IMG/VR virus record: IMGVR_UViG_3300009320_000041
Coordinates: 1-41,684 of that record
Source of the DNA: a virus
Strand: one strand, 5' to 3'
Length of the DNA: 41,684 bases
Shown piece by piece: positions 1 through 41,684 of this stretch (its first letter is position 1; every line of letters begins with the position of its first letter). The position numbers and the translations under genes were made by a program. The notes under the pieces are model-generated. The model saw only the letters and a list, made by a program, of their open reading frames with translations. It was not told the origin of the DNA and ran no database searches.

Positions 1-119
1 AACATAGCATAAAAAGTATCAAAAACAAAAACTATCCATTGAGTCAATTTTTCAGCTAATAAACCTAACAAACCCGTTATTCCTCCTGTATCATACGCTT
101 CCTTAAATTCAACTAATAA
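1..119. repeat. Left copy of 119-bp exact terminal direct repeat
   Basis: Bases 1-119 are identical to 41566-41684. An open reading frame (tape measure) runs through both copies in the same frame, so the two ends join without damage. The simplest reading is the overlap left when an assembler closes a circular or circularly permuted genome. A length of 119 equals a common assembly k-mer, which favours this over a physical terminal repeat. Confidence 0.95.
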
Positions 120-2794: not shown

Positions 2795-3517
2795 CTAACT
2801 TTGATCGTAATATCTTGCTTCGATAGTTATATCCTTTCTAAAGATTCCCATATCTTCTTCTGATCTTATTCTTTCTGATCTAACTATCTTCCAGTCATAA
2901 AATTTCCAAGGAATTACTTGTCTGTTTGTTTCAAAATAGTTAATAATTTGTTCAGATATTGCATTTACTAAATCCATGTTTTTATATTTAATACTACTAT
3001 ACGTATAATCTTCAGTTAGTTTTCTATTTCTAACTATAACTTTACCTCTGAATGTTACCAAATCTCCCATTTTAGAATTATAACTGCTGTAAATTCCCAT
3101 ACCTGGAGTTTCGTAATCAAAAGCTACGCTATCAACAGTTATTCTTGGAAAAGTTCCGCTGTTTTGATATGGATGGTCGTCATAAATCCATTGTTTTACT
3201 GTTTGATAAATAACTTCTATATTATCGTCATCGTCTGAAGGCGTACTACCACTCCAGGTAATAGTTCCAGCACTAGAATCAAGATCAAAATCTACACCGT
3301 CAGTTTTAGCAGTACCGTCTAATTTAACTATGAATCTTCCACCTGAAGATGGTTTTCTTTCTAAGTAATTAACTTGAGAAGCAGTTCCATCTCCACTAAA
3401 TAGTTGAGTATAATTAGCATAACCACGAGACGCATTAGAAAGAGGATCTGTAACATTGAAGGTTAAGAAATGTCTTATCATATAAGTAACAACGTCAGCT
3501 GTTTTCAGATTCTTCAT
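2795..3517 (-). CDS. Putative tail completion or terminator protein
   Basis: A protein of 240 residues beginning MKNLKTADVVTYMIRHFLTF. The C-terminal part (alternating strands with DITIEARYYDQS at the end) and the location between the gp10-like neck protein and the tail tube fit a tail terminator, the hexamer that caps the tube before joining the head. A middle part (YLERKPSSGGRFIVKLDGTA) resembles a small beta insert also seen in viral fibres and hubs. Start ATG 3517 has GAGGAAG upstream. The role is inferred from order, not from a recognised motif. Confidence 0.55.
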   Translation of the reverse strand: MKNLKTADVVTYMIRHFLTFNVTDPLSNASRGYANYTQLFSGDGTASQVNYLERKPSSGGRFIVKLDGTAKTDGVDFDLDSSAGTITWSGSTPSDDDDNIEVIYQTVKQWIYDDHPYQNSGTFPRITVDSVAFDYETPGMGIYSSYNSKMGDLVTFRGKVIVRNRKLTEDYTYSSIKYKNMDLVNAISEQIINYFETNRQVIPWKFYDWKIVRSERIRSEEDMGIFRKDITIEARYYDQS

Positions 3518-5078: not shown

Positions 5079-7208
5079 TCACTCTATGTATGGAATAAAC
5101 CTAAAGTTCCGTATTCTATTGTCTGTTTGTGCTTCATAAAGTACAAAATTTGAAGATGTCCATGTTGTATCTGTGAACGGCATTGCTCCAGCTCCACTAT
5201 CAGTAAGCATTACCCAAGCTCCAGCACTATTTAAGTAATAAGCTGTAAATACTCCAGCAGACGTCCTAGTAACTCTATATTTTTGCCATCCATGTTCTGG
5301 AAATAGTTCATTTGATGTGAACTTAAGAGCTGCTCCTCCAGCACCATTTGATTCATAAATTTGAATTGCACCTGTATTTATTACTGAGAAGAAATACGTT
5401 TCATTTGTAACAGTATAACTTGTAGCATCACTTGCCATAAAATATACTCTGCTAACTATTCCTGCAAAGTCAGGACTAATTTCAAATTCCCAAGTACCAA
5501 CTGCTTGTTTTGACGGAATAGAGATTAACCCAGTTCCTTCACATGTTAATTTCTTAGAATCTGTCTTAGCTTCGTAAAGTCTTACATCATCAAACTCAAC
5601 ATAACTTGCCCCATTTGTATCATTTACTAAGTAAAAGTTTATTCCATCTGCTTCTGCTTCAATATCAAAGTATGTCCAAGTTGTTCCATCTATTGTCCCA
5701 TGGATTACCAAACCTCCAATATAAATATCTGCACTTCCTGTTCCATCTGTTCTTGCCCAGCCTGTTATCCTATACTTTTTCCCAACTGTAAGAAGATTAG
5801 TTTTATATATTCCTGCATTATCAGCATCTGTATAAGCTACTCTTACATAAGAACTTCCAGTTACTGGATCGGTTGTTTGTTCAGTTACTGTTGCATTTCG
5901 ATATATTAACCAATTATCTAGAACTCCTCCTGTCCAATTCTCAAAATCATTATTACTCAATAATTGACTTCCAGTTCTATTACTATAAGAATCATCTACT
6001 TGCCAAGAACCAGAACCTACACTCCATTCAGTATTCTCTACAAATCCTGAAGTTACATTAGCATCGGAAACATTCCAACCTTTTCCATCTGAAATATAAA
6101 CATCATATCTAGGATTAATTTCTATAACAGTCACATCATCTACAGAACCAACAAAATTAGTGTCTCCTTTGAGGTAAATATGTCTGTCGGTAGAAGATGA
6201 ATTAATATAATAATATTCATAAGTACCATTTGCAGATATATCTGGAGCAACAACACTAGATACTCCACCAATCAGTACTTTTAAATTTCCAGCAGAATAA
6301 CCACTAACGGTTACTTGAATCTTATATTTTTTTGTAAATTCTACTACATTATTTTGATATAAATCAGTTGATGCTACTTGACTACCATCACAACTTGCTA
6401 CTCCTCCAGAAATACTCCAACCAGTTCCCTTTATCCAATCTGAATCAGCATCGAAAGTTCCATTTGTTACTAGTTCGTTTCCATATACTGGGTTGTTTGT
6501 TTGTATCTCTGGCATTGTAAATGGTCTTTCTTGTTTAGATTCTTCATATAATTGAGATACTTCTTGACCTGTAAGATTTGTATCTAATATCATTGCTTCT
6601 AATACATTTCCACCAAGAAAAGTTGCATTACCACCATTATTCCAATTTCCACAACCAATTCTTCCGTTGTCCAAACCACCTAAATCATTAAACCAATAAG
6701 TTTTATCTGTAGATGTAGAAAATGTTTGAGCAACTGCGACTCCATTTACATATAAAATTGGCTCTGTTCCATCTTGAACCAAAGCAATGTGAATCCACTC
6801 ACCGTTAACAAAAACTGCATTATCGGTATCGACAGCCCATTGCGTAGTTCCTGTTTCTCCTATTAATGCACGTAAAAGACTATTGTTAATATCAAACTGA
6901 ATCCTAGTGTCTGCGTCTGTATCTCCAAAACTTATTATCTCTTGTGTTGTTGTTGCATCAGTAGTTTTAATCCATGCTGTCCAAGTTCCAACAGTGTCAG
7001 ATGCTAAATCTCCAACTGCCGTATCAATATCAATATAATCTGTACTTCCATCAAAATTTAAAGTTTTTCCTTTTTTTGAATTTTGCCAAAAAGGAGTTCC
7101 TCCAAGTGTTCCATTATTATAATTTCCTGAATTGTCTGCAATACTACCTCTTCTGAAATCCCAGTGTCCTACAATGTTAGCCACATATTTATCTTTTATC
7201 TTAACCAT
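5079..7208 (-). CDS. LamG-type adhesin with carbohydrate-binding-like modules (receptor-binding candidate)
   Basis: A protein of 709 residues. Residues 10-225 are a LamG/concanavalin-like domain (VGHWDFRRGSIADNSGNYNN near the start, NGEWIHIALVQDG and LYVNGVAVAQ later). Residues about 245-360 and 420-545 are two jelly-roll modules of the kind that bind sugars (NPVYGNELVTNGTFD, then VGKKYRITGWARTDGTG and ASYVEFDDVRLYEA), and residues about 560-709 form a final beta domain. No signal peptide. Such proteins bind cell-surface glycans; in the virion operon it is a likely head or tail fibre. SD GGTGAGACC precedes ATG 7208. Confidence 0.75.
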   Translation of the reverse strand: MVKIKDKYVANIVGHWDFRRGSIADNSGNYNNGTLGGTPFWQNSKKGKTLNFDGSTDYIDIDTAVGDLASDTVGTWTAWIKTTDATTTQEIISFGDTDADTRIQFDINNSLLRALIGETGTTQWAVDTDNAVFVNGEWIHIALVQDGTEPILYVNGVAVAQTFSTSTDKTYWFNDLGGLDNGRIGCGNWNNGGNATFLGGNVLEAMILDTNLTGQEVSQLYEESKQERPFTMPEIQTNNPVYGNELVTNGTFDADSDWIKGTGWSISGGVASCDGSQVASTDLYQNNVVEFTKKYKIQVTVSGYSAGNLKVLIGGVSSVVAPDISANGTYEYYYINSSSTDRHIYLKGDTNFVGSVDDVTVIEINPRYDVYISDGKGWNVSDANVTSGFVENTEWSVGSGSWQVDDSYSNRTGSQLLSNNDFENWTGGVLDNWLIYRNATVTEQTTDPVTGSSYVRVAYTDADNAGIYKTNLLTVGKKYRITGWARTDGTGSADIYIGGLVIHGTIDGTTWTYFDIEAEADGINFYLVNDTNGASYVEFDDVRLYEAKTDSKKLTCEGTGLISIPSKQAVGTWEFEISPDFAGIVSRVYFMASDATSYTVTNETYFFSVINTGAIQIYESNGAGGAALKFTSNELFPEHGWQKYRVTRTSAGVFTAYYLNSAGAWVMLTDSGAGAMPFTDTTWTSSNFVLYEAQTDNRIRNFRFIPYIE

Positions 7209-7212
7209 GGTC

Positions 7213-8544
7213 TCACCTATTAAACTCCTTTAAAGTTTTTTCATGAAGCCATCTAATCTGTGTTGGTGTTAGTGCATCTCTCTTTACAATTGGAAACTTA
7301 AGTGCTCCGTCAACTTGCCAGTGTAATGTTGTTAGTGCGCCAATCATAAATGGTGTTGACTTTTCCCAAGAACCAGTTTTTGTAATTGTTGTTCCTCCAG
7401 CATTTTTCAATTCTCCATCCATGTATAAATAGACTTTGTTAGTATCGGTTCTATCTACCACAGCAGCATAAGAATGCCAAAATATATCATCTATAACATT
7501 CAAAGCAATTATATTCTGACTTCCTACTCCACCATCGTTACATTGAAATTGTAAATCTCTTGATCCTTCTTCTCCAAAATAATAACCTGGTTCATTTACT
7601 AAAGTACCAATATTTTTAGAAAAGAATATGTTTTGAGTTTTTGTATCTAATCTAGCCCAAATAAAAAAAGTCATATCTGTTGTTGCTGTAATATCTAAAC
7701 TACTTTGATCTCCACAGTTGATATAATCTCCACCATCAAAACTTGCACCGTTGTTATCTAATAATGTTGGATAAGTTGTAGCTGTACTTCCATCTCCCCA
7801 TTTAATAACATCTGATGATATATTTCCTAAGTTAGGAGTAACCTCTGTCGAACCAGTATTATAGTGACTTCTTAGAGGTAACCATAATTCAAATACAGAA
7901 GGATCAATTTCATTAAAAGTGAAAGAAGAAAATCTATCACTTACTTCTCCAGATGACCATTTTCTATTATAGGTATTTACATTTCTAATATTACCATCGA
8001 AAGTATTTGCACCAGCATTATCAGAACCAACATAAAAATTAGGAGGATCTGCTGCACTCCAAGCTGTAGCATCTGCGTCAACTATTTTATTATTATTTAA
8101 ATAAACATCTGAATCTCCAGTAGTCCCTGCAATAACTAGATGATTAAATCCATTTTGATTCCAATATGCAGAATAAGTTCCTGAAGCAACATTAACAATA
8201 TTAGTATTTCCCAAAGAGATATTTAAAGAATTTCCTCCAGCATTGTTTGCTTTTAGAACGTAATATCTACTTCCTGTTGTTGAATCGATAATATACCTTG
8301 CAACATTTTCGTCATAATCAAAATCAGGAAAAAATATTACTTCTATTGATAGGGGATCTTTTTCACTAAATAGACCTTCTGATTCAAAGCTTGCATATTG
8401 TGTACTTCCATTCAATGTAATCCCATCACTAATGGTTGGATTTCCAGTTTTAGTACCTCCATTATCTGTAAAATATGAATCGTTTATAAATGACTCTCTG
8501 AAAATCGCATCCTCTGCTTTTATTTCTGGATATAATAGGACCAT
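7213..8544 (-). CDS. Double LamG-domain adhesin
   Basis: Two concanavalin-like jelly-rolls in tandem: one at about residues 25-215 (STQYASFESEGLF, LNISLGNTNIV, then FYVGSDNAGANTFDGNIRNV) and one at 225-440 (SFDGGDYINCGDQSSLDI, then DTNKVYLYMDGELKN and FMIGALTTLHWQVDG). The ATG at 8544 is chosen over 8550 because the only SD-like sequence (GGGCG) ends immediately before the first ATG; the protein is then 443 residues. No signal peptide. Probably a virion surface protein acting with the next, larger LamG protein in host attachment. Confidence 0.72.
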   Translation of the reverse strand: MVLLYPEIKAEDAIFRESFINDSYFTDNGGTKTGNPTISDGITLNGSTQYASFESEGLFSEKDPLSIEVIFFPDFDYDENVARYIIDSTTGSRYYVLKANNAGGNSLNISLGNTNIVNVASGTYSAYWNQNGFNHLVIAGTTGDSDVYLNNNKIVDADATAWSAADPPNFYVGSDNAGANTFDGNIRNVNTYNRKWSSGEVSDRFSSFTFNEIDPSVFELWLPLRSHYNTGSTEVTPNLGNISSDVIKWGDGSTATTYPTLLDNNGASFDGGDYINCGDQSSLDITATTDMTFFIWARLDTKTQNIFFSKNIGTLVNEPGYYFGEEGSRDLQFQCNDGGVGSQNIIALNVIDDIFWHSYAAVVDRTDTNKVYLYMDGELKNAGGTTITKTGSWEKSTPFMIGALTTLHWQVDGALKFPIVKRDALTPTQIRWLHEKTLKEFNR

Positions 8545-15553: not shown

Positions 15554-16396
15554 TTAACCTTTTAACTTTTTGTAAAACTTACTCACTTTAGACTTTATAT
15601 GTCTAGAATATTCTGGAGACTTTATTCCTCTTTTTATTCCGACTATTTTTGCTCCATCCACTTCACCCTCTGTAACTGAACTAATTGCCTTTCCACTAAT
15701 TCTCTGAACTTTATTAGAACTTTGTTCAACTGTAAAGTCATGAGTTGAACTTACATCTTTAATTAGACCATTTTCTATTCTGTCTAGATAATTCTGAGTG
15801 AATTTAACTTCTGGAACTTTCACTTTTGCTGCTAACCATTTCTTTCCATCTTGTACTGTTTTGTACACTTTATCTATCATACCGAATTCCAGTCCAGATT
15901 TCTCATTATGGTTTAAATAGAATGGTTTTCCTTCGAATGTTGCAGAATTTTCTTCAATAGTTTCCCAATCGTACTCATATGGAGTTCCATTTGTTTTATA
16001 TTTTCCTGGAGTTAAAAACAACACATCGACTAGTGCGTACTCTTTCATGCCAATGCCAGAGAATCGTGCTGTTTTAACCGCAGGGGTGAACCCATGAGAA
16101 ATCACTTTCGCATGTCTTGCTACGCATTTCTTGTAATGTTTTGCAAGTTTGATATACTTTGGACTATACTTCTTAACATCTCCGTCTAGTTTTTTCTTGT
16201 AATCGTCTGGAATTTGACCTAAACCTGAATGTTTAGCTTTTCTTGAATTTTTCCAATACTTAGCTACTTTCTTCATTTCCGCTGGCCACTTTCCAGTTAC
16301 TTTTTTCTCTATTGAAGCACAGTATCCTTCTGGACTATCCTTATCTTGGTTTTTTGAAACACAATCTTTGAAATCTTTATAATCTGCAAACAGCAT
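15554..16396 (-). CDS. Prohead serine protease-like protein
   Basis: A protein of 280 residues. The N-terminal 40 residues (DFKDCVSKNQDKDSPEGYCA) match a short module often fused to phage head proteins. The core from about residue 110 fits the prohead protease fold: EYALVDVLFLTPGKYK, GKPFYLNHNEKSG with the likely catalytic His, and NGLIKDVSSTHDF with the likely catalytic Ser. The ATG overlaps the portal stop (TAATG). The enzyme would clip scaffold and capsid arms during maturation. The catalytic residue assignment is mine and not tested. Confidence 0.72.
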   Translation of the reverse strand: MLFADYKDFKDCVSKNQDKDSPEGYCASIEKKVTGKWPAEMKKVAKYWKNSRKAKHSGLGQIPDDYKKKLDGDVKKYSPKYIKLAKHYKKCVARHAKVISHGFTPAVKTARFSGIGMKEYALVDVLFLTPGKYKTNGTPYEYDWETIEENSATFEGKPFYLNHNEKSGLEFGMIDKVYKTVQDGKKWLAAKVKVPEVKFTQNYLDRIENGLIKDVSSTHDFTVEQSSNKVQRISGKAISSVTEGEVDGAKIVGIKRGIKSPEYSRHIKSKVSKFYKKLKG

Positions 16397-18438
16397 TAGT
16401 CATCACCTTTTATAAATTTTAGAGTAGACCTGCAATTAGGATGAGCACTTGGTGCATAACCACTCCATCTTCTGGTCTTTCCTGACCCGTCTTTATAAGT
16501 AACTTTAAACTTCTCTCCAACTTTTACTTTCTTTCCATGAAGAGCTTTGCATACTTGAGAAGTGTCTTTATCCATCAAACTATCCCACACTTTGTAACTT
16601 AATCCTTTATTCTTAGCATCTTCTAATTTAGCGTGTTGTACTAAGTTAGTTTGTTCTGTTGCTAGAATTCTTCTAGTTTCTTCTTTAGTGTAATTTCCTA
16701 CTTTCTTTACTTCTTCAAAAATAGCAGTAGATGATTTTCCTTTTGCTTCACCATTAACAATAATATCTCTTATTTTCTTAGCTTTTGATTTAGATACTGA
16801 TTTTATCTTTTTTCCAACGTCTTCTTGAGCTACTTTCTTATAATTTACATCTTCTGTTTTGAATTCTTTGTTTAATCCCTTATCTAATATTTCAGTTGGT
16901 TCTAATGCAAGTTGAGCTCTTTTTTGTTTTTCAAATCTGCTTCCAACGTACATATCTAATTCTGTTTGATCTTGTGGTTTATCTCTGACTTCATCTGAAA
17001 ATACCTCTCCTCTGTTTCTGTCTTCTATTTCGTTTAGATTTAACATATCTCTTGCTTCGTTTAGATTAATTAAACCAGCATTCCACTTATCCATTACCAT
17101 TTTCTCTCTTAGAATTTGGTCTTGTACTATGAATTGAGGCCATTTTATCTCAGGAACATAAATGCTTCTTTCTATATCTGTAGATAAATATCCCTTAGAT
17201 TTAAGATATAAACCTAGAATCTTATATATATATTCTTCCAGAACTCTCCTATCTGCCTGAACGTCTTTTTCAAAGTCAGAACTTCCTTGCTCAGATGTTG
17301 CTCTATTAGCTTCACCCTCTCCCAATAATAATTCTCGTGGAACTCTAAGTCCTGTTGCAACTGCAGTAACATACCATTCTGGATATGACGATATATTTCC
17401 TGATCCAGTAGCAGAAGATTCTATATAACTTAGATCTACAAAATATCCAGTAACAAAAGCTTCTTTTCTTACTGGGTCTAGAACCATATCATCGGCAGCG
17501 TCCATCATTTTCTCAGTAGGTGGGTGTTTTTCATTACCAACTTTTGCGTGCATTTTTGGATAGCCCATTGTATTAATTGATTCTGCCATTGCAGACATAA
17601 CTTGACGTAAGTGAACTAAATTATTATAAGCTGGAACTATCATAGAAGTTCCGTAATGATTATCGTTTAGATTGTTAAAACTTAAATGAGCAATTTCTTC
17701 TTTCTTTAAGAATATATAATTTGGTTTTCTAAATATTGATGCTACTTCTATACCTTGTTCGTTAGTTATTTCTAAACTTTGAGATTCATCGAGTCTTTTT
17801 TTACTAGCTTCTATATTCGCATAACTTTCTAAGTCTCCGTAAGTAGATGCTAGGCTGTTATATAAATCTGTTAGGTTTTCTATGTATTGCCAGTAACCAA
17901 TTGGGTCTCCCTGTAAATCTAGGAGTATTTTGTTGCTTATGTGATTTCTTCTAAAATCTATTGTTCTGAAATCCCCATGGGCGACTGATGTCAGATTTCC
18001 TAGAGAGTTATAAGTTAGTTCTGTCCATTCGTTACCAGCCACATACGCATTTATTATTGATTGTCTTAGGAATGTCAAATACCCTATTTTCTTTAAGAAT
18101 CTGTCGCAATCATCTTTAGCAAGCTTAGAAATCTCTGGATCAATATTAACTCCATCAGCTTGTACAAGTTCAAATCCCTCTCCGATTACTCTGTTTGCTC
18201 TTATGTTTAAAGCTTTATTAACAAGTGGTTCTTCCCAATAAAGTCTTTCCATATCTGCAATAGTAATAGAGCTTTCTTCGTTAGTTCTTAGAGATACTGT
18301 TGGATTTGTAATATCATAAGTTCCAGTATCACTGCTTGGAACAGTTATTTTTTTATGTTCTGCTCTTATAGTTTGTGGTATTCCTCTCATTCTCGAAAAA
18401 GTAGCTTGTTTTTTTAAAGTTTTTTTATCTTCTTCCAA
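16396..18438 (-). CDS. Portal protein fused to a MuF-like C-terminal domain
   Basis: A protein of 680 residues. Residues about 50-480 are a portal: WEEPLVNKALNIRANRVIGE, LTFLRQSIINAYVAGNEWTE, then VRKEAFVTGYFVDLSYIES, ATGLRVPRELLLGEGEA and the stem region with QDQILREKMVMDKWNAGLI. Residues about 570-678 are a Mu gpF-like domain (ETRRILATEQTNLVQHAKLE, KVWDSLMDKDTSQVCKALHG, APSAHPNCRSTLKFI). The start is TTG at 18438 with GAGGGTTG upstream; no in-frame ATG is nearby. The portal forms the dodecamer through which terminase pumps DNA. It is preceded by its own promoter at 18496-18519. Confidence 0.85.
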   Translation of the reverse strand: MEEDKKTLKKQATFSRMRGIPQTIRAEHKKITVPSSDTGTYDITNPTVSLRTNEESSITIADMERLYWEEPLVNKALNIRANRVIGEGFELVQADGVNIDPEISKLAKDDCDRFLKKIGYLTFLRQSIINAYVAGNEWTELTYNSLGNLTSVAHGDFRTIDFRRNHISNKILLDLQGDPIGYWQYIENLTDLYNSLASTYGDLESYANIEASKKRLDESQSLEITNEQGIEVASIFRKPNYIFLKKEEIAHLSFNNLNDNHYGTSMIVPAYNNLVHLRQVMSAMAESINTMGYPKMHAKVGNEKHPPTEKMMDAADDMVLDPVRKEAFVTGYFVDLSYIESSATGSGNISSYPEWYVTAVATGLRVPRELLLGEGEANRATSEQGSSDFEKDVQADRRVLEEYIYKILGLYLKSKGYLSTDIERSIYVPEIKWPQFIVQDQILREKMVMDKWNAGLINLNEARDMLNLNEIEDRNRGEVFSDEVRDKPQDQTELDMYVGSRFEKQKRAQLALEPTEILDKGLNKEFKTEDVNYKKVAQEDVGKKIKSVSKSKAKKIRDIIVNGEAKGKSSTAIFEEVKKVGNYTKEETRRILATEQTNLVQHAKLEDAKNKGLSYKVWDSLMDKDTSQVCKALHGKKVKVGEKFKVTYKDGSGKTRRWSGYAPSAHPNCRSTLKFIKGDD

Positions 18439-18540: not shown

Positions 18541-18576
18541 GTAACTAGGGTTACAAAGTTGAATAAGTGTTCAACG
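18541..18576 (-). terminator. Two hairpins at the end of the terminase gene
   Basis: Minus strand: GTTGAA-CACTTA-TTCAAC overlaps the terminase stop codon and is followed by TTTG; then GTAAC-CCTA-GTTAC. Together they separate the terminase transcript from the portal promoter. A terminator role is likely but the T-run is short. Confidence 0.5.
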
Positions 18577-20286
18577 TCTTCTACTTTTTGATCTAAACAT
18601 TCCACGTTCTATGGGTTTTCCTGTATATCTGTTCTTATATACATTCTCAAATGATTTCATCCTAGTAAATTCTGGGTAAATTATCTTATAAAGAGCCATA
18701 ATTAGACTATCTGCATAATCTGGTGACTTTTCTGGATCAATTACTTTTCTCTTTCTGTCTGATTTTATCTCATATATCCAGCTTCTTAATTGTAAAATGT
18801 ACTTAGAACTAGGAGGTAAGTTGTAGAATCTACCACTTTTCATTAGTTCTGCTGTGTTAAATACCACTTCTGACTTTAAATTATAGTATTTTTCATCTTG
18901 TCTTGCTTTGTTTCCAGCTACAAATGGAAATACTTTATAGTGCAATTCATTCAGTCTATCGTATACTCCTGCTCCTAAACCTACTGTATCTACTACTATT
19001 TCTGAGTTATCTATTCCATATTTTGAACAAATCTCGCATACCTGTCCAACTACTTCCATTGTATTATTTGTATCAATAGCTAAATGTTCTAAGTAGAGTA
19101 TGTCGCTTTCTTTCTTTCCTAAGACTGTAATTACTGTTATGTCTCTTCCACCTCTCGCTACGTCTACACCGATTAGATATTTGTCAAATTCATCTTGTTG
19201 TTTTAGTCTTTGTGAGTTTTCTATTGCTTCATTTGAAAAGATTGAATATTCTAGTTCTTGTGGAAATTCTGCTTCGAATAATACTAAGAATTCTAATTCT
19301 GTCAGTTCTCTTCTCTGATCATCTATTGCTTCTTGTGTCATTCTTCCCTCTTTTACACAGTCTCTCCAATTAACATGAAACTTAGTCCAACCGTCGTCAC
19401 TGTGATGTTGGTGAAAGTGATTTAGAAACCATGGATTACCTATTTCAAGTAATATCATATCTGGTTTTTCTACTAGCATTCTGTATATCTTAGAATAAGC
19501 ATCATCTGGTATTTCTGCTGTTTCATCACAATTATGAACCAAAACTCCATTAGCAAAATAATTGTTGTTATCTTCAATTTCTAAGTTATAAACTGGCAAT
19601 TTGTATTTCAAACTTCTTTTTGAAACAACTGTGTCTACTCTCAAACCAACCCAATTCCAAAAATCTTCTGACCAATCTATATAACTATAATTTTTATATT
19701 TCTTTCCTTGTGTTCTTCCATGATATTTTAAATGGCAGGTATGGCATAAGGTTATCAAATTAGATTTATCAGAATTCATTTTTTCCTTGTCTATGTGGTG
19801 GACATCAATACCTTTGTTTCCACACTTTAAACATTTATACTTATCTCTTTTTCTTATTTCTTTCTTAAGCCTTTCATTAAACAATCCGTCATATAAATCC
19901 TCTGATATGCCACCTTGCCAATTTACATTTTTGTCTCTAGATATACGCTTACTGTGATATTGATTTTTGCAATCCATACAACAAAAATTAGTTTTATGGA
20001 GAAGAGAGGGGATTTTTGTAATTACTTTATTGCAATTAGAACACTTTATCTTTCTCCTTTTTCTATTAACTAGACCAAAACATTTCTTTGAACAATATTT
20101 TCTACTTGTCTTTATATATTTATTTCTAATTTTAACTTTCTTTTTACAGTATTCACATGAGAAATAAGAAAATCTCCTTTGGAATAAACCTCTACATTTT
20201 CTACTACAAAAATTATATTTAACTCTATTTATATGTGATCTTCTTTTTCTAAAATTCTTCCTACAATGATCACATTCGATTTCCAT
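18571..20286 (-). CDS. terL-C: HNH endonuclease - IntC - terminase large subunit C-terminal half
   Basis: A single ORF of 571 residues in three parts. Residues 1-110: three CxxC...CxxxC zinc ribbons. Residues 120-190: HNH nuclease (CLKCGNKGIDVHHIDKEKMN, CHTCHLKYH). Residues about 213-252: C-terminal intein half ending NGVLVHN with C253 as first extein residue. The remainder is the terminase: CDETAEIPDD (end of Walker B), then an RNase H-like nuclease with D375 (IGVDVARGG), D433 (VVDTVGLG) and D523/D526 (SPDYADSLIMA). It has its own SD (GGTG about 13 nt before ATG) and is 31 bp after the N-half stop. Active enzyme needs trans-splicing with the upstream half. It lacks any initiator Met between the HNH and IntC, so the endonuclease is translated as part of the same chain unless a TTG near codon 215 is used. 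Confidence 0.88.
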   Translation of the reverse strand: MEIECDHCRKNFRKRRSHINRVKYNFCSRKCRGLFQRRFSYFSCEYCKKKVKIRNKYIKTSRKYCSKKCFGLVNRKRRKIKCSNCNKVITKIPSLLHKTNFCCMDCKNQYHSKRISRDKNVNWQGGISEDLYDGLFNERLKKEIRKRDKYKCLKCGNKGIDVHHIDKEKMNSDKSNLITLCHTCHLKYHGRTQGKKYKNYSYIDWSEDFWNWVGLRVDTVVSKRSLKYKLPVYNLEIEDNNNYFANGVLVHNCDETAEIPDDAYSKIYRMLVEKPDMILLEIGNPWFLNHFHQHHSDDGWTKFHVNWRDCVKEGRMTQEAIDDQRRELTELEFLVLFEAEFPQELEYSIFSNEAIENSQRLKQQDEFDKYLIGVDVARGGRDITVITVLGKKESDILYLEHLAIDTNNTMEVVGQVCEICSKYGIDNSEIVVDTVGLGAGVYDRLNELHYKVFPFVAGNKARQDEKYYNLKSEVVFNTAELMKSGRFYNLPPSSKYILQLRSWIYEIKSDRKRKVIDPEKSPDYADSLIMALYKIIYPEFTRMKSFENVYKNRYTGKPIERGMFRSKSRRR

Positions 20287-20614
20287 ATTTTATATTACAC
20301 CACACAATATTAAAAACTTAACCAAAACCCACAGAAAGAACCTTATCTTTTTCTTTTACATCCGAAGCCTTGGTATATCCTTTTCCAATTACGTAAATTG
20401 GATGATTTGGAGTACACTTTAGTTTATTTTCTTTCATTTTCAATTCTATCAATTTTACTGTTTTACTCTTAAAATATCTTTTTATCCTTTTAAATTCTAA
20501 TTTCTTTCTCTTGTGATTATAACTTAACACTTTTACTTTCTTTCTTTTCTCTACTATTTCTCCTATTTTTAATTTACCTTTATTTGTATTTATCAGTGTA
20601 TTATAAGGAAAACA
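19531..20614 (-). mobile_element. Split intein with HNH homing endonuclease inside terL
   Basis: This segment spans everything between the two terminase exteins. The N-intein begins at Cys (codon at 20614-20612, CFPYNTLINTNKG) and shows the block B motif CTPNHPIYVI. It is followed by a stop, a 31-bp gap, a new start, the zinc-ribbon HNH region and the C-intein (VYNLEIEDNNNYFANG, then VLVHN). The extein junction would read GYDFVI-CDETAEIPDD. The layout is an intein-homing endonuclease element that has been broken by a stop plus new start but kept both splicing halves. Confidence 0.85.
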
Positions 20615-21073
20615 AATTACGAAATCATAACCAAAACCCATTACACCGAATCCTTTCTTTTGTAAGTCTATTGATTTTATTTCTATTAGTGATCCGTTTT
20701 TGAAAGTTATTCTTCTCTTAGATACTTCTTTTCTTAGTCTTTCTAACTTAGACATTCCTTCTGTGTCTACCATTACTATTTGATCGAATATATTATTAGA
20801 ACTTAACATTGTAGCTACATAATCCATTATTGGTTTTGTCTTATCGTAGCTAGGGGCAATAATACCAACCCTTACGTTGTTATTGAAAATAGCGTATAGA
20901 ATCGCTGAAATAGCTATAATAAAAGACTTTCCTGCTCTGGTAGTACTTCTTATAGTTATTTTTCTTTTGCCTTCAAATACTGCTTTTAGGATGTCATGCT
21001 GGTAATTGTAAATTTCTATATCGAAAAACATTCTACATATCTTTCTTAGTCTTTTTAGCAGTCTTGGTTTCAT
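20318..21073 (-). CDS. terL-N: Terminase large subunit N-terminal half - IntN
   Basis: A protein of 251 residues from ATG 21073 (GGTGAGG SD). The ATPase half has TIRSTTRAGKSFIIAIS (Walker A), RVGIIAPSYDKTKPIMDY and the strand GYDFVI leading to Walker B. The chain then passes into an intein N-half of about 98 residues (CFPYNTLINTNKG, LSYNHKRKKLEFKRIKRY, CTPNHPIYVIGKGYTKASDV) and stops after LSVGFG. The intein lies exactly before the D-E of Walker B, so this half alone lacks the catalytic Glu. It overlaps the terminase small subunit gene by 41 bp. The motor packages viral DNA through the portal. Confidence 0.87.
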   Translation of the reverse strand: MKPRLLKRLRKICRMFFDIEIYNYQHDILKAVFEGKRKITIRSTTRAGKSFIIAISAILYAIFNNNVRVGIIAPSYDKTKPIMDYVATMLSSNNIFDQIVMVDTEGMSKLERLRKEVSKRRITFKNGSLIEIKSIDLQKKGFGVMGFGYDFVICFPYNTLINTNKGKLKIGEIVEKRKKVKVLSYNHKRKKLEFKRIKRYFKSKTVKLIELKMKENKLKCTPNHPIYVIGKGYTKASDVKEKDKVLSVGFG

Positions 21074-21446
21074 CCTCACCATCCACAAAGTCTTTTAACT
21101 TCCAGATTAATCCTTTTTGTTCTATGTTTACTTCTACTTCTGGTTTGTCTTTCCAATTAACTGGGTCTCTGTTCTTTAAGTAGAATATAATAGCTGGTAT
21201 GCTTTTGTCCTTTATACATTCATATAATTTAGATTGTGCAAACTCAATTGCTATGTTTTGTATTTCTTCTACTTCTTGTTTGTATTGTTTGTCTTTCTTT
21301 AACCAATCATAATGGGTAGTTCTAGTAATACCTACTGATTTACAAGCTGTAGTTACTATTCCTAACGACTTAGTTAAAGCTTCTATCATAGCTTTCTTTT
21401 TTATAGTGTTAGGTTTTGTTAGTTTTTTCTTTCCTTCTTTTACCAT
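21033..21446 (-). CDS. Terminase small subunit-like HTH protein
   Basis: A protein of 137 residues, ATG 21446 with AAAGGTGGTATTT upstream. Residues 15-50 form an HTH (MIEALTKSLGIVTTACKSVG, ITRTTHYDWLKKDKQYKQE), followed by a helical oligomerisation part (EFAQSKLYECIKDKSIPAII) and FYLKNRDPVNWKDKPEVEV, a segment typical of phBC6A51-type small terminase subunits. It recognises viral DNA and loads the large subunit. It overlaps terL-N, as is usual for this pair. Confidence 0.8.
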   Translation of the reverse strand: MVKEGKKKLTKPNTIKKKAMIEALTKSLGIVTTACKSVGITRTTHYDWLKKDKQYKQEVEEIQNIAIEFAQSKLYECIKDKSIPAIIFYLKNRDPVNWKDKPEVEVNIEQKGLIWKLKDFVDGEDETKTAKKTKKDM

Positions 21447-21457
21447 AAATACCACCT

Positions 21458-22690
21458 TTATAACTTCTTAGCTTTTTTGTTTGTTAGTTTTTCCCATCTG
21501 TTTATTATTACTTGACAGTATGATCTATCAATTTCCATCATGTAACACCTTCTGTTTAACTGTTCACAGGCTATTAGAGTTGATCCTGAGCCACCAAATA
21601 AGTCTAGTATTATTTGATTCTCTCCAGAGTAATCTTTTAGAATATTGCAATGTAATCCTACTGGTTTTTGAGTTGGGTGAACACGTTTAATCATTTCTTC
21701 AGTTCTATTTCCTTTTCTCAATAGACCAGACCATAGATGTCTATATATTCTACTTGGTCTTTTAAATGATGTCCAAGCTATTTCACAGTCTGCAAAATTA
21801 TTAGATGGAATACCCTCTCTTTTATCCCAAATTAACCAACAGGGAGTATCTCCTAATTTTGAAGCAACATAATTACCACCCCATATTATCTGGTTTTTTC
21901 CATAGTTCAATAAAAAAGTTGGATCAAACGGTTTGTCATCGCCAACTATCTTCTTGTGCTTCCCAACTTTTACTATTCCACTGGCTCTATTGGAGCCAGT
22001 GGAAGACTTGGATTCAAGTCTTCCACCACCATATCCTATTTTAGAATTATCCTTTACTATATTGATCCCATAAGGAGGATCAGTGAATACCATATCTGCC
22101 TTCTTTCCATCCATTAACTTAACCACGTCTTCTTTCTTAGTAGAATCTCCACACATTAGTCTATGGTTTCCTAGTTGGATTATGTCTCCTGTTTTTATAT
22201 TTGTTTTTATTTCTTCTGGATTGTCTGCTTCTGGGTCTTCAAATTCTTTCTCTTCTGTATTGAAATTTAAATCTAAATCTTGGAATTCAAGTATGTCTTC
22301 TAGTTCTTTTGTATTTAGTTCGAATTCTTCAATGAACGTTTCTAGTCCTCCTTGTGTTATTATTCCGTATTGGGAGTTATAAGTTAAGACCATTTCTGCT
22401 GCTTCTTTTTGTGTTTTTGCTTCTATTTCTACTATTGGTAGTTTATTGTCTTTTAAGATGTATTCTTCTTTAATTAGTTCTTCTACTGCTTTTAGTCTTT
22501 GATGTCCGTCTAGAATATAGTTTTTTTTATCCCATATAAAAATAGGAGCATTGAAACCGTTTTTTATTATTGAGTTTTTTAGTTTTTGTTTTTCTTTTAG
22601 TCTTAGTTCTTTTAACTCTCCTTGGAAGTTTAATAGTTTGTTTATCTCTAACATCTTACAGTTTTTTACTTTTATTTTTATTTCTTTCAT
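21458..22690 (-). CDS. ParB-like domain fused to adenine-type DNA methyltransferase
   Basis: A protein of 410 residues from ATG 22690 (GGTGG SD). Residues about 12-110 are a ParB/Srx-like domain with ILDGHQRLKAVEEL. The rest is a beta-class amino methyltransferase: GNHRLMCGDSTKKEDVV, DMVFTDPPYGINIV (catalytic DPPY), and near the end ILDLFGGSGSTLIACEQLN (SAM-binding FxGxG). It would methylate adenine N6 or cytosine N4 in viral DNA, giving protection from host restriction or marking DNA for packaging; it is located directly before terminase. No partner restriction enzyme is present. Confidence 0.85.
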   Translation of the reverse strand: MKEIKIKVKNCKMLEINKLLNFQGELKELRLKEKQKLKNSIIKNGFNAPIFIWDKKNYILDGHQRLKAVEELIKEEYILKDNKLPIVEIEAKTQKEAAEMVLTYNSQYGIITQGGLETFIEEFELNTKELEDILEFQDLDLNFNTEEKEFEDPEADNPEEIKTNIKTGDIIQLGNHRLMCGDSTKKEDVVKLMDGKKADMVFTDPPYGINIVKDNSKIGYGGGRLESKSSTGSNRASGIVKVGKHKKIVGDDKPFDPTFLLNYGKNQIIWGGNYVASKLGDTPCWLIWDKREGIPSNNFADCEIAWTSFKRPSRIYRHLWSGLLRKGNRTEEMIKRVHPTQKPVGLHCNILKDYSGENQIILDLFGGSGSTLIACEQLNRRCYMMEIDRSYCQVIINRWEKLTNKKAKKL

Positions 22691-22713
22691 TAATACCACC
22701 AATTAACATAATA

Positions 22714-34007: not shown

Positions 34008-36086
34008 TCAATCACCTTTCTGCATTTCTAATACTTCTTCCATATCTATTTTTGTTGTGTTTTTCTTTTTAATTTTTAACAATTCTTCCATTATGGATTT
34101 CTCATATTTAGATTTTTTTTTACCTGTCATAACACTTTCCTCCACACTCTTATCGAAAATAATGGTCTTTTTTACCCTTAGTTCCTTGTTGTTATACATG
34201 AAAAACATATCGTATTCTTTGTTTTTAATTATCTTTGGACACTCTGATAGATTTTTTATAACATACTTACTTGTAGATTCGAATACTCTAAAACATTTAT
34301 CTTTAGTATCCCAGAACAATACCCATCCATGGCCGTAGTTCATATAGAATCCAAGTTGTACCCAAGCTTCCCATGGGTAGAATTCTATACGGTTTCCATT
34401 GGTTTTAACATGTTTGAAGTTTAATAATACACTAATTGTGTGATTAGCTAAACTTTCACAGTTATGGACGACTATATCATGCTCTGGGAGATATATTCCA
34501 TTATTTTCAGTTTCTATATCATAAACATTCTTTGCTTCTCCATCTTCAATTTTTAATATAGTTACTGGTTTTTTATTATAGAAATCTTTTATGTACGGTC
34601 TTATTCTGTAGATTGGATTTCTTCCTAAACCACCATGTTTTACATATTTTTTAAGCGAAGAGTTGTATCCCAAAAATTTGGTTAATAATCTTATCTGGGT
34701 TGCTAGTTTTCTAGATATTGTTCCGTATACGTTATTGTTCCCATACTTAGCAGAATCAGCTTTTAATCCTTCCAATAATGCTTCTATTTGATCATCATTC
34801 AATTGTAAAAGGTCTTTTGTCAGATGTTTATTTAAAGCACCATGTCCGAAATTCTCAAACATTTTTGAAAGTTCTTTGTCTTTTACATTTATATATCTCT
34901 CTTGCCACTTGTACGGTATATCGTTAGCTTCACAATAACAAACTACCCATTTTTTCTGTTCTTCTTTTGGAAACCCATCTTTTCCAGATATTGCAAAATC
35001 TAGTCCTTTGTGAATTTCCCATCCATCAGCTATATATAACCCTATTAATTTAAGAAAATCAACATCATGATCACATGTAAATTTCCTTTCCAAAGTTTCT
35101 GGTCTTAACAATACATCCCCTTCTCTTAATTCAGATACCTTCTTTACAAATATATTATTTGGAGTCGTTACTTTACTATCTATAAAAAATATTTTATGAT
35201 CTTCAGTTGCTTCTAATATCGAACCAGTGCTAAGGTATATCTTCTTTACTTTTAACTTCCCCTTCTCCCACTTGTTTTTAACTTTTGTAATTTTGCCATC
35301 CATACCATATATTTTTTCTCCTACATTAATGTCCTTTATTTCTATTAATTCCATATCCTCCCTTAAAAGCAGAGTATCTTCTGGAAGGCAATCATCCGAC
35401 ATAGTCATATGTGTTTCTTCAGAATTAGACCAGAAGTCTCCTATTGATCCGTACTTATCTGCATCTAGTATATAGTTAAAGTCTTTTGCGTGTTGTTTGA
35501 AAACAGCCAATAAGACCTCTTGCTTTGTCTTTGGTTTATATTGGTCATAGATGCTCTGTGCGTATTTAATTATAGGTAGAGAGCCCATTTGGATCAAATT
35601 ACGCACATCCATAGGTTGATGTACCCATTTCTTTGATCCTTCTGTCTTTTTTCTTACATATCTATCTCTTCTATTGTTGAATATATAGCTAGTTAATTTA
35701 AGACTGTTTATGTATTCTTTAGCTTTTGTGTGTGGTGGTTCAAAGTCATGTTCAACTATGGTTTCAAGTGCATATATCTCTTCTTTTAACTTAGCCACTT
35801 CTTGTTCTTTCTTTGTTAATTCAGAACTTAGCTCTGCTATTTTATTCTTGTTTTGATTAGAAGTAGAAGATAGAGAATCTTCCAACTTTTTTATTTGTTT
35901 TTCAAGTTTTATTACTTGAAGCTCTTTAGATTTAGATGTTTTTTCAAATTGAGTCATTAAAAGCTCTTCTTTTGATATTTCTGTTTGAACCTCATCTCTA
36001 TAGCAAGCATGTATGTCCTTTTTGAATTTGTTAAATCTAAGATACTTGCCAGAGATAAATTGTGCTATTTGGTCTTTCCAGTCCAT
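34008..36086 (-). CDS. Transglutaminase-like cysteine peptidase interrupted by a LAGLIDADG intein
   Basis: A precursor of 692 residues. Residues 1-115: charged coiled coil (QVIKLEKQIKKLEDSLSS, IAELSSELTKKEQEVAKLKE). Residues 120-232 and 543 on: a transglutaminase-like fold. The intein takes residues 233-542. After splicing the active site reads DD-CESLANH with C543 as nucleophile, H586 in NYGHGWVLFW and an acidic residue at D593 or E603 (VFEST). In this fold C, H and D/E form the catalytic triad. Mature protein is about 382 residues. It lies among late tail genes and may digest the host envelope at entry or lysis, as pseudomurein peptidases of methanogen viruses do. Confidence 0.82.
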   Translation of the reverse strand: MDWKDQIAQFISGKYLRFNKFKKDIHACYRDEVQTEISKEELLMTQFEKTSKSKELQVIKLEKQIKKLEDSLSSTSNQNKNKIAELSSELTKKEQEVAKLKEEIYALETIVEHDFEPPHTKAKEYINSLKLTSYIFNNRRDRYVRKKTEGSKKWVHQPMDVRNLIQMGSLPIIKYAQSIYDQYKPKTKQEVLLAVFKQHAKDFNYILDADKYGSIGDFWSNSEETHMTMSDDCLPEDTLLLREDMELIEIKDINVGEKIYGMDGKITKVKNKWEKGKLKVKKIYLSTGSILEATEDHKIFFIDSKVTTPNNIFVKKVSELREGDVLLRPETLERKFTCDHDVDFLKLIGLYIADGWEIHKGLDFAISGKDGFPKEEQKKWVVCYCEANDIPYKWQERYINVKDKELSKMFENFGHGALNKHLTKDLLQLNDDQIEALLEGLKADSAKYGNNNVYGTISRKLATQIRLLTKFLGYNSSLKKYVKHGGLGRNPIYRIRPYIKDFYNKKPVTILKIEDGEAKNVYDIETENNGIYLPEHDIVVHNCESLANHTISVLLNFKHVKTNGNRIEFYPWEAWVQLGFYMNYGHGWVLFWDTKDKCFRVFESTSKYVIKNLSECPKIIKNKEYDMFFMYNNKELRVKKTIIFDKSVEESVMTGKKKSKYEKSIMEELLKIKKKNTTKIDMEEVLEMQKGD
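34461..35390 (-). mobile_element. LAGLIDADG intein in the peptidase gene
   Basis: An intein of 310 residues: starts CLPEDTLLLREDMEL, block B TEDHKIFF, two LAGLIDADG-type helices LIGLYIADG (residues 347-355) and ALLEGLKADS (436-445), and ends VYDIETENNGIYLPEHDIVV-HN before C543. All splicing residues (C1, block B Thr/His, His-Asn end, Cys+1) are present. It is full length with a homing endonuclease, so still possibly mobile. It belongs to a different type from the HNH split intein of the terminase. Confidence 0.88.
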
Positions 36087-41108: not shown

Positions 41109-41684
41109 CTAATAGCCTCTTTGGAAAAAACCAAATCTAGAAGATTTGGAATTTACATCTTCTATTGCCTTTTTGACCATTTCCCCTATTGCCCTGTCTC
41201 CATTTCCATAGATGTTTATGGTATAATTATTTCCACCCGATTCTCCTAAAGTTGAAGGGTCTTTTACTCCTATAATTGTATCATCTGGTGAGAATGATGC
41301 TGCTCCTTGACCTGGTCTCATTATAAAATCATCCAAAGGGCTCCCCCACATACCTAAAGTTTCTCCAATTACATACTGAGTAGGGTCTTTAAGGCTACTT
41401 ATTAATTGATCCATCTTATTCTTAATATATCCAACCAAATTGAAATTAGTTATTTTATCTGCCAAATCACCAATTGCTTTAGTAAATTTTTCAATAGCTT
41501 CCTTTGCATTTGGTATTACATTATCCGCTATCCATTCCAAGAATAATGGTATTATTGTATTGGTAAACATAGCATAAAAAGTATCAAAAACAAAAACTAT
41601 CCATTGAGTCAATTTTTCAGCTAATAAACCTAACAAACCCGTTATTCCTCCTGTATCATACGCTTCCTTAAATTCAACTAATAA
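41109..41684 (-). CDS. Tape measure protein, C-terminal part
   Basis: Continuation of the frame at 1-1004 across the junction. Ends with a helical, hydrophobic segment (QWIVFVFDTFYAMFTNTIIP) and a soluble tail (NNYTINIYGNGDRAIGEMVK) ending in a GY-stop. Joined length is 486 residues. Confidence 0.85.
   Translation of the reverse strand, partial: LLVEFKEAYDTGGITGLLGLLAEKLTQWIVFVFDTFYAMFTNTIIPLFLEWIADNVIPNAKEAIEKFTKAIGDLADKITNFNLVGYIKNKMDQLISSLKDPTQYVIGETLGMWGSPLDDFIMRPGQGAASFSPDDTIIGVKDPSTLGESGGNNYTINIYGNGDRAIGEMVKKAIEDVNSKSSRFGFFQRGY
41566..41684. repeat. Right copy of 119-bp exact terminal direct repeat
   Basis: Identical to bases 1-119. Removing one copy gives a closed circle of 41,565 bp in which the tape measure gene is intact. 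Confidence 0.95.

What the first reader, a model, noticed from the sequence alone, without database searches (positions are those of the whole stretch)
18571..21073. Terminase large subunit made as two proteins joined by a split intein, with HNH endonuclease fused to the second half
The N-half carries Walker A and an N-intein; the second ORF has its own SD and carries zinc ribbons, an HNH nuclease, a C-intein and the nuclease half of terminase. The break is exactly at Walker B (GYDFVI-C-DETAEIPDD), so neither half can hydrolyse ATP before trans-splicing. In known split inteins with homing endonucleases, the endonuclease is usually a separate ORF between the halves. Here it is in the same chain as IntC and the extein, so splicing would also release the endonuclease. 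DNA packaging may thus be timed by protein splicing.
Basis: partly seen in the sequence, partly recalled or inferred. Interest (0 to 1): 0.88.

Follow-up and report, generated by a model that had tools for sequence, protein, structure and literature searches.

The report
Split-intein terminase carrying its own endonuclease
A virus, probably of a tiny archaeon, makes its DNA-packaging motor as two separate proteins that should join by trans-splicing a split intein, and the selfish DNA-cutting enzyme that normally sits in a gene of its own between the halves is here part of the second protein; relatives show the same gene uninterrupted, split in three, or with the cutter hidden out of frame.

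Summary
On the minus strand, ORF1 (21073-20318) is TerL N-half plus a 98-aa class-1 N-intein. ORF2 (20286-18571) is zinc ribbons, HNH, a 39-aa C-intein and the TerL C-half; spliced product 472 aa. The break is not a single sequencing error: joining the ORFs needs at least two changes, and related contigs are split at or next to the same place. The closest TerL (55-61% identity, archaeal MAG LFW-35, Ca. Anstonella) has no intein. In split relatives L051, L122 and L166 the HNH is a separate ORF overlapping the C-intein ORF. In L048 the intein is continuous and the HNH is nested out of frame. Of 84 inteins compared, only the window has the HNH in frame with the C-intein, one net indel away from the usual layout. 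It is a new variant of known fractured genes (naturally split inteins with a homing endonuclease). Trans-splicing, nuclease activity and timing of packaging are untested; the timing idea has no support here. Main caveat: a 1-nt error near 19644-19656 would restore a three-ORF layout.

The parts
20615..21073 (-). TerL N-extein (153 aa): ATPase N-part with Walker-A-like TTRAGKS (20944-20924)
   Evidence: phrog_2 E=6.3e-7; 61% identity to the intein-free TerL of L118
20321..20614 (-). N-intein, 98 aa, Cys1 and TxxH (TPNH) present; stop codon at 20320-20318
   Evidence: TIGR01445 E=1.8e-13; best solved relative the NrdJ-1 split intein 8ubs, E=7e-8
20287..20317 (-). 31-nt gap; stops in all three frames across the junction (20320, 20312, 20297, 20292); GGTG 11 nt before ATG
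19648..20286 (-). N-terminal zinc-ribbon units plus HNH endonuclease (residues 1-213), HH...N...H residues intact
   Evidence: phrog_1271 E=8e-18; 43% identity to the separate HNH of L051, 36% to the nested HNH of L048; confident fold ending near residue 213
19531..19647 (-). C-intein, 39 aa, blocks F and G ending HN; in frame with the HNH
   Evidence: TIGR01443 E=3.2e-8
19642..19644 (-). TTG codon (Leu215), 17 codons before VYN, close to where split relatives have the ATG of a separate IntC ORF; overlaps a TGA in the +1 frame (TTGA)
18574..19530 (-). TerL C-extein (319 aa): Cys+1, Walker B DE, GNP motif, RNase H-like nuclease motifs (GVDVARGG, IVVDTVG, SPDYADS); stop codon 18573-18571
   Evidence: phrog_2 E=3e-21; Foldseek to TerL nucleases
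21033..21455 (-). terminase small subunit, overlaps the TerL start
   Evidence: phrog_309 E=5.8e-11
16396..18438 (-). portal with Mu F-like C-terminal domain, downstream in the packaging block, syntenic with L118

Best explanation
The window is a probably complete tailed-virus genome, likely of a DPANN archaeon. Its TerL is interrupted at the Walker B C|DE by a naturally split class-1 intein whose homing endonuclease is fused to the C-intein. ORF1 makes ExtN-IntN and ORF2 makes HNH-IntC-ExtC (anatomy shown). The intein halves bind, Cys1 and Cys+1 exchange and Asn cyclises, giving a 472-aa TerL plus an IntN / HNH-IntC complex (inferred from intein chemistry and intact residues). The HNH most likely cuts intein-less terL genes of the L118 type and repair copies the insert (inferred). 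The fusion most likely arose by one net indel between a separate HNH ORF and an overlapping IntC-ExtC ORF, as still seen in L051, L122 and L166 (inferred from reading phase).
For: Both intein ends, HNH and TerL halves recognised. All splicing residues present. Empty-site homologue L118, 55-61% identity with syntenic TerS-TerL-portal, and continuous reading VIC|EESGE. Same gene split at the same point in L051 and L055, and two residues upstream in L057 and L122. L051 has a separate HNH 43% identical, ending at the residue where the window runs on into IntC. HNH-to-IntC phase is +2 in every other split locus with an HNH trace and in the phase-1 nested ones, 0 only in the window. Other long ORFs of the window are intact, which argues against a high indel rate.
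Against: No reads, no second assembly of this virus, and no other contig with the same junction. Every split relative keeps the HNH out of the IntC frame, so the window is a single case. The ORF2 start signal is spaced 11 nt. No splicing or nuclease activity was tested. Direction of change is unresolved: the splicing-domain tree has few columns and weak forks.
Confidence: 0.72

Rival explanations
1. Three proteins, not two: the in-frame HNH-IntC fusion is a 1-nt sequence error or is bypassed, and IntC-ExtC is translated from TTG 19644 as in relatives. It would then be an ordinary fractured gene with a separate HNH.
For: L051, L122 and L166 have HNH and IntC in different, overlapping frames with IntC starting about 18-22 residues before VYN. 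In the window a TTG lies close to that place and a +1-frame TGA overlaps it.
Against: The frame is open without a break from HNH through ExtC, has no ATG between the HNH core and IntC, and the rest of the 41.7-kb window shows long intact ORFs. TTG is a weaker start.
Confidence: 0.15
2. The two terminase halves work as two non-covalent chains, or the intein is dead and the locus is decaying.
For: A functional genes-in-pieces enzyme is known for Aeromonas phage Aeh1 NrdA (PMC3653736, PMC10448857). Some relatives carry only HNH remnants (L055).
Against: All intein catalytic residues are kept, both intein halves score well, and the break lies inside Walker B. TerL, nuclease and HNH motifs are intact.
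Confidence: 0.07
3. The break is a sequencing or assembly artefact of a continuous HNH intein.
For: No reads; one contig.
Against: Needs at least two independent changes; independent contigs are split at or next to the same place; no continuous intein with an in-frame HNH was found among 84.
Confidence: 0.03
4. Splicing has been co-opted as a timer of DNA packaging.
For: TerL would be inactive until splicing if both halves are needed for ATP hydrolysis (motif positions).
Against: No conditional element, conservation or expression evidence; the closest relative has no intein (L118); the pattern of presence, absence and remnants fits a selfish element.
Confidence: 0.03

Closest known systems
Fractured genes: split inteins with a free-standing homing endonuclease between the halves (Dassa et al. 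2009, known to me from memory; examples read: MIJ3 PolB in PMC6892783, AceL NrdHF in PMC7891396)
   Same: enzyme gene broken inside an intein at the usual endonuclease site (IntN 98 aa here and in AceL NrdHF); phage gene; endonuclease associated
   Different: endonuclease is not a separate ORF but the N-terminal part of the IntC-ExtC chain
Naturally split TerL inteins (AceL TerL, GOS-TerL; named in PMC7891396 and PMC7090010)
   Same: split intein in terminase large subunit
   Different: those are, to my own knowledge, atypically split with a short IntN; here the split is at the canonical endonuclease site and an HNH is attached
Relatives found here: L051, L122, L166 (split, separate HNH) and L048/L050 (continuous intein, HNH nested out of frame)
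   Same: intein at or two residues from the Walker B site, same kind of HNH in the same place
   Different: HNH not in the IntC frame
Hidden out-of-frame HNH insertions in phage methylases (ShiLan domain, PMC11855218)
   Same: HNH read from another frame than the host gene; comparable with L048 and the other nested inteins here
   Different: no intein there; in the window the HNH is in frame with the C-half
Bifunctional (endonuclease-containing) cis-inteins
   Same: order IntN - endonuclease - IntC
   Different: two chains, with a stop and frame change after IntN

Membership tests
class 1 intein | Cys/Ser at position 1, block B TxxH, terminal HN, Cys/Ser/Thr at +1 | tested here: met
   C1, TPNH, HN, C+1; TIGR01445 and TIGR01443 above cut-off
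naturally split intein | halves encoded by two ORFs at an internal break | tested here: met
   stop 20320-20318, new ATG 20286, no single indel joins them; recurrent in relatives
naturally split intein | protein trans-splicing | not testable with these tools
   needs expression
fractured gene | free-standing endonuclease gene between the halves | tested here: not met
   HNH in one open frame with IntC and ExtC; met in L051, L122, L166
cis-intein with endonuclease domain | single reading frame IntN-endonuclease-IntC | tested here: not met
HNH homing endonuclease | HNH residues with zinc-binding cysteines | tested here: met
   phrog_1271; PF01844 just under its cut-off; residues invariant in alignment A2
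HNH homing endonuclease | cuts the intein-less site and drives homing | not testable with these tools
   an empty-site homologue exists (L118)
terminase large subunit | ATPase plus RNase H-like nuclease | tested here: met
   phrog_2, Foldseek to TerL nucleases, neighbours TerS and portal
hidden out-of-frame HNH | HNH in a frame other than the continuous host ORF | tested here: not met
   window HNH shares the IntC frame; L048 meets it

The most novel reading that the evidence does not exclude
Endonuclease genes overprinted out of frame inside continuous inteins, with their own internal start, let a cis-splicing intein become a trans-splicing split intein in one step: a frameshift at the HNH/IntC border is rescued because the internal start now makes HNH-IntC-ExtC. 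The window would be a direct product of such a conversion, and the L048 / L051 / window series a record of how split inteins form and interconvert.
Probability: 0.3. Interest if true: 0.8.

Novelty: new variant of a known kind. Interest (0 to 1): 0.63.

Why it matters
How split inteins arise, and how endonucleases enter and leave inteins, is open. One group of related viruses here holds the empty site, a continuous intein with an overprinted HNH, a three-ORF split, splits with HNH remnants, and this in-frame fusion, so the steps can be compared and tested. The fused form would also be a natural split intein in which excision yields an endonuclease already complexed with the intein.

Tried and rejected
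Single-protein scans of viral contigs with ORF2 and the portal found nothing; ORF1 found only intein or TerL look-alikes. Genome scan with the IntC/Walker-B DNA pattern: none. Junction pattern: none besides the window itself. A group I intron was set aside because both intein ends are coded in frame with the exteins and score as inteins. A continuous HNH intein with one sequence error was rejected. Direct descent of the window from the L048-type nested state could not be told from descent from the L051-type split: the tree is weak. L054 is also split but has a further frameshift and a damaged IntN start, so it was not used as evidence for intact function. Dassa 2009 is not held, so whether it contains an endonuclease-IntC fusion was not checked.

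Full report
Observation. The two ORFs are as described. The minus strand carries TerS (21455-21033), then ORF1 (ATG 21073, stop codon 20320-20318) and ORF2 (ATG 20286, stop codon 18573-18571). ORF1 is 153 aa of TerL with a Walker-A-like TTRAGKS, then a 98-aa N-intein (TIGR01445, E=1.8e-13) whose best solved relative is the NrdJ-1 split intein (8ubs, E=7e-8). ORF2 starts with zinc ribbons and an HNH domain (phrog_1271, 8e-18), then a 39-aa C-intein (TIGR01443, 3.2e-8), Cys+1 and the rest of TerL (phrog_2, 3e-21). The exteins meet at FVI|CDE, within Walker B. A predicted structure of ORF2 shows a confident HNH part ending near residue 213, a low-confidence C-intein as expected without its partner, and a nuclease domain that matches solved TerL nucleases. 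The window has 119-nt direct terminal repeats, so the genome is probably complete.

Is the break real? Stops lie at 20320 (ORF1 frame), 20292 (ORF2 frame), and 20312 and 20297 (third frame), so one indel cannot join the ORFs. More strongly, other contigs are split too. In L051, ExtN-IntN ends at 452, a separate HNH runs 488-1270 and IntC-ExtC starts at 1258. L055 is split with an HNH remnant, L057 is split without an HNH, and L054 is split but poorly assembled. L122 and L166 are split with a separate HNH. L057 and L122 are inserted two residues upstream (C|ILDE-type site).

Relatives. L118, a contig of the archaeal MAG LFW-35, named Candidatus Anstonella stagnisolia in PMC8561730, has a TerL 55-61% identical with no intein, and the same order of TerS-like gene, TerL, portal and the gene after it. 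That and the GGTG(A) start signals point to a DPANN archaeal host; this is inference. L048 and its near copy L050 have a continuous TerL-intein ORF, and the same kind of HNH (36% identity to the window) lies nested in the +1 frame as an ORF of 232 codons. The longest open run in 2000 synonymous reshufflings of that region was 204 codons.

Census. Profiles for IntN, IntC and HNH were run on all loci. Of 84 non-identical inteins, 57 are continuous with an HNH match in another frame, 19 are continuous without an HNH match, none is continuous with an in-frame HNH, 7 are split with a separate, remnant or no HNH, and 1, the window, is split with the HNH in the IntC frame. LAGLIDADG endonucleases, in contrast, were in frame where found (L056, L077). 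The sample was drawn by C-intein / Walker-B patterns and by HNH kinship, one HNH profile was built from nested ORFs, and some of the 57 matches are weak, so the numbers describe this sample only. In all other split loci with an HNH trace, and in the nested loci of HNH phase 1, IntC lies +2 relative to the HNH frame; in the window it lies 0. At the nucleotide level the window HNH aligns with the L051 HNH to its last residues (W-V against W-I-K-I-stop) and then runs into IntC. The fusion is therefore one net indel from the usual overlapping layout.

How it most likely works. Shown: anatomy, intact residues, empty site, recurrent split, unique fusion. Inferred: the two chains associate through the intein halves and splice in trans to a 472-aa TerL, leaving HNH-IntC bound to IntN; the HNH cuts intein-free terL and homing follows; the fusion arose by an indel at the HNH/IntC border. 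Not shown: any activity, and any control of packaging by splicing. A TTG at 19644 sits close to where relatives start their separate IntC ORF, so a shorter IntC-ExtC protein may be made as well, or, if a base is wrong there, instead.

Comparison. Split inteins with a separate endonuclease are known (MIJ3 PolB with HNH orf154 between orf153 and orf155, PMC6892783; [quoted passage not shown] The window shares their logic but fails the separate-endonuclease feature, so it is filed as a new variant. The papers I could search do not describe an endonuclease-IntC fusion in a split gene, but the founding paper on fractured genes is not held.

Verdict. The wider series, from empty site through nested HNH and three-ORF split to fusion, is the more valuable part.

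Noticed in passing
L005-L050, L128, L131, L132, L137 and others: HNH endonucleases in these TerL inteins are nested out of frame: 57 of 84 inteins are continuous with an HNH in another frame and none has it in frame. The in-frame linker is low-complexity. PMC11855218 describes hidden HNHs in methylase insertions that are not inteins.
   Followed up: partly
window 34461-35390 (ORF 34008-36086, minus): A second, continuous intein of 310 aa (PF14890 E=2.7e-10, weak LAGLIDADG_3) at DD|CES of a protein of unknown function.
   Followed up: no
window 1-119 and 41566-41684: Identical 119-nt direct terminal repeats: the record is probably a complete genome.
   Followed up: yes
L118:11295-15875: The portal gene of the intein-free TerL relative in Ca. 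Anstonella LFW-35 carries its own in-frame insert that reads as an intein (ANRA|CYVADT...), where the window portal has none.
   Followed up: no
L003:6253-7314: Continuous intein in a helicase-like gene; ORF 6422-7267 in another frame overlaps it and reads as a zinc-ribbon protein with a Vsr-like C-terminal nuclease (by eye).
   Followed up: partly
L057:2107-2551 and L122:1560-2654: Related split inteins lie two residues upstream (C|ILDE, C|IIDE) of the window's site in TerL.
   Followed up: no
L093:2671-3439: Split intein in what reads as a ribonucleotide reductase gene, with an unidentified ORF (2992-3360) between the halves.
   Followed up: no
L056:3732-5468: Two inteins in close succession, one with LAGLIDADG in frame and one mini-intein.
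   Followed up: no
window 21458-22702: DNA methylase (N6_N4_Mtase) with a weak ParB-like N-terminal match, just upstream of the terminase genes.
   Followed up: no
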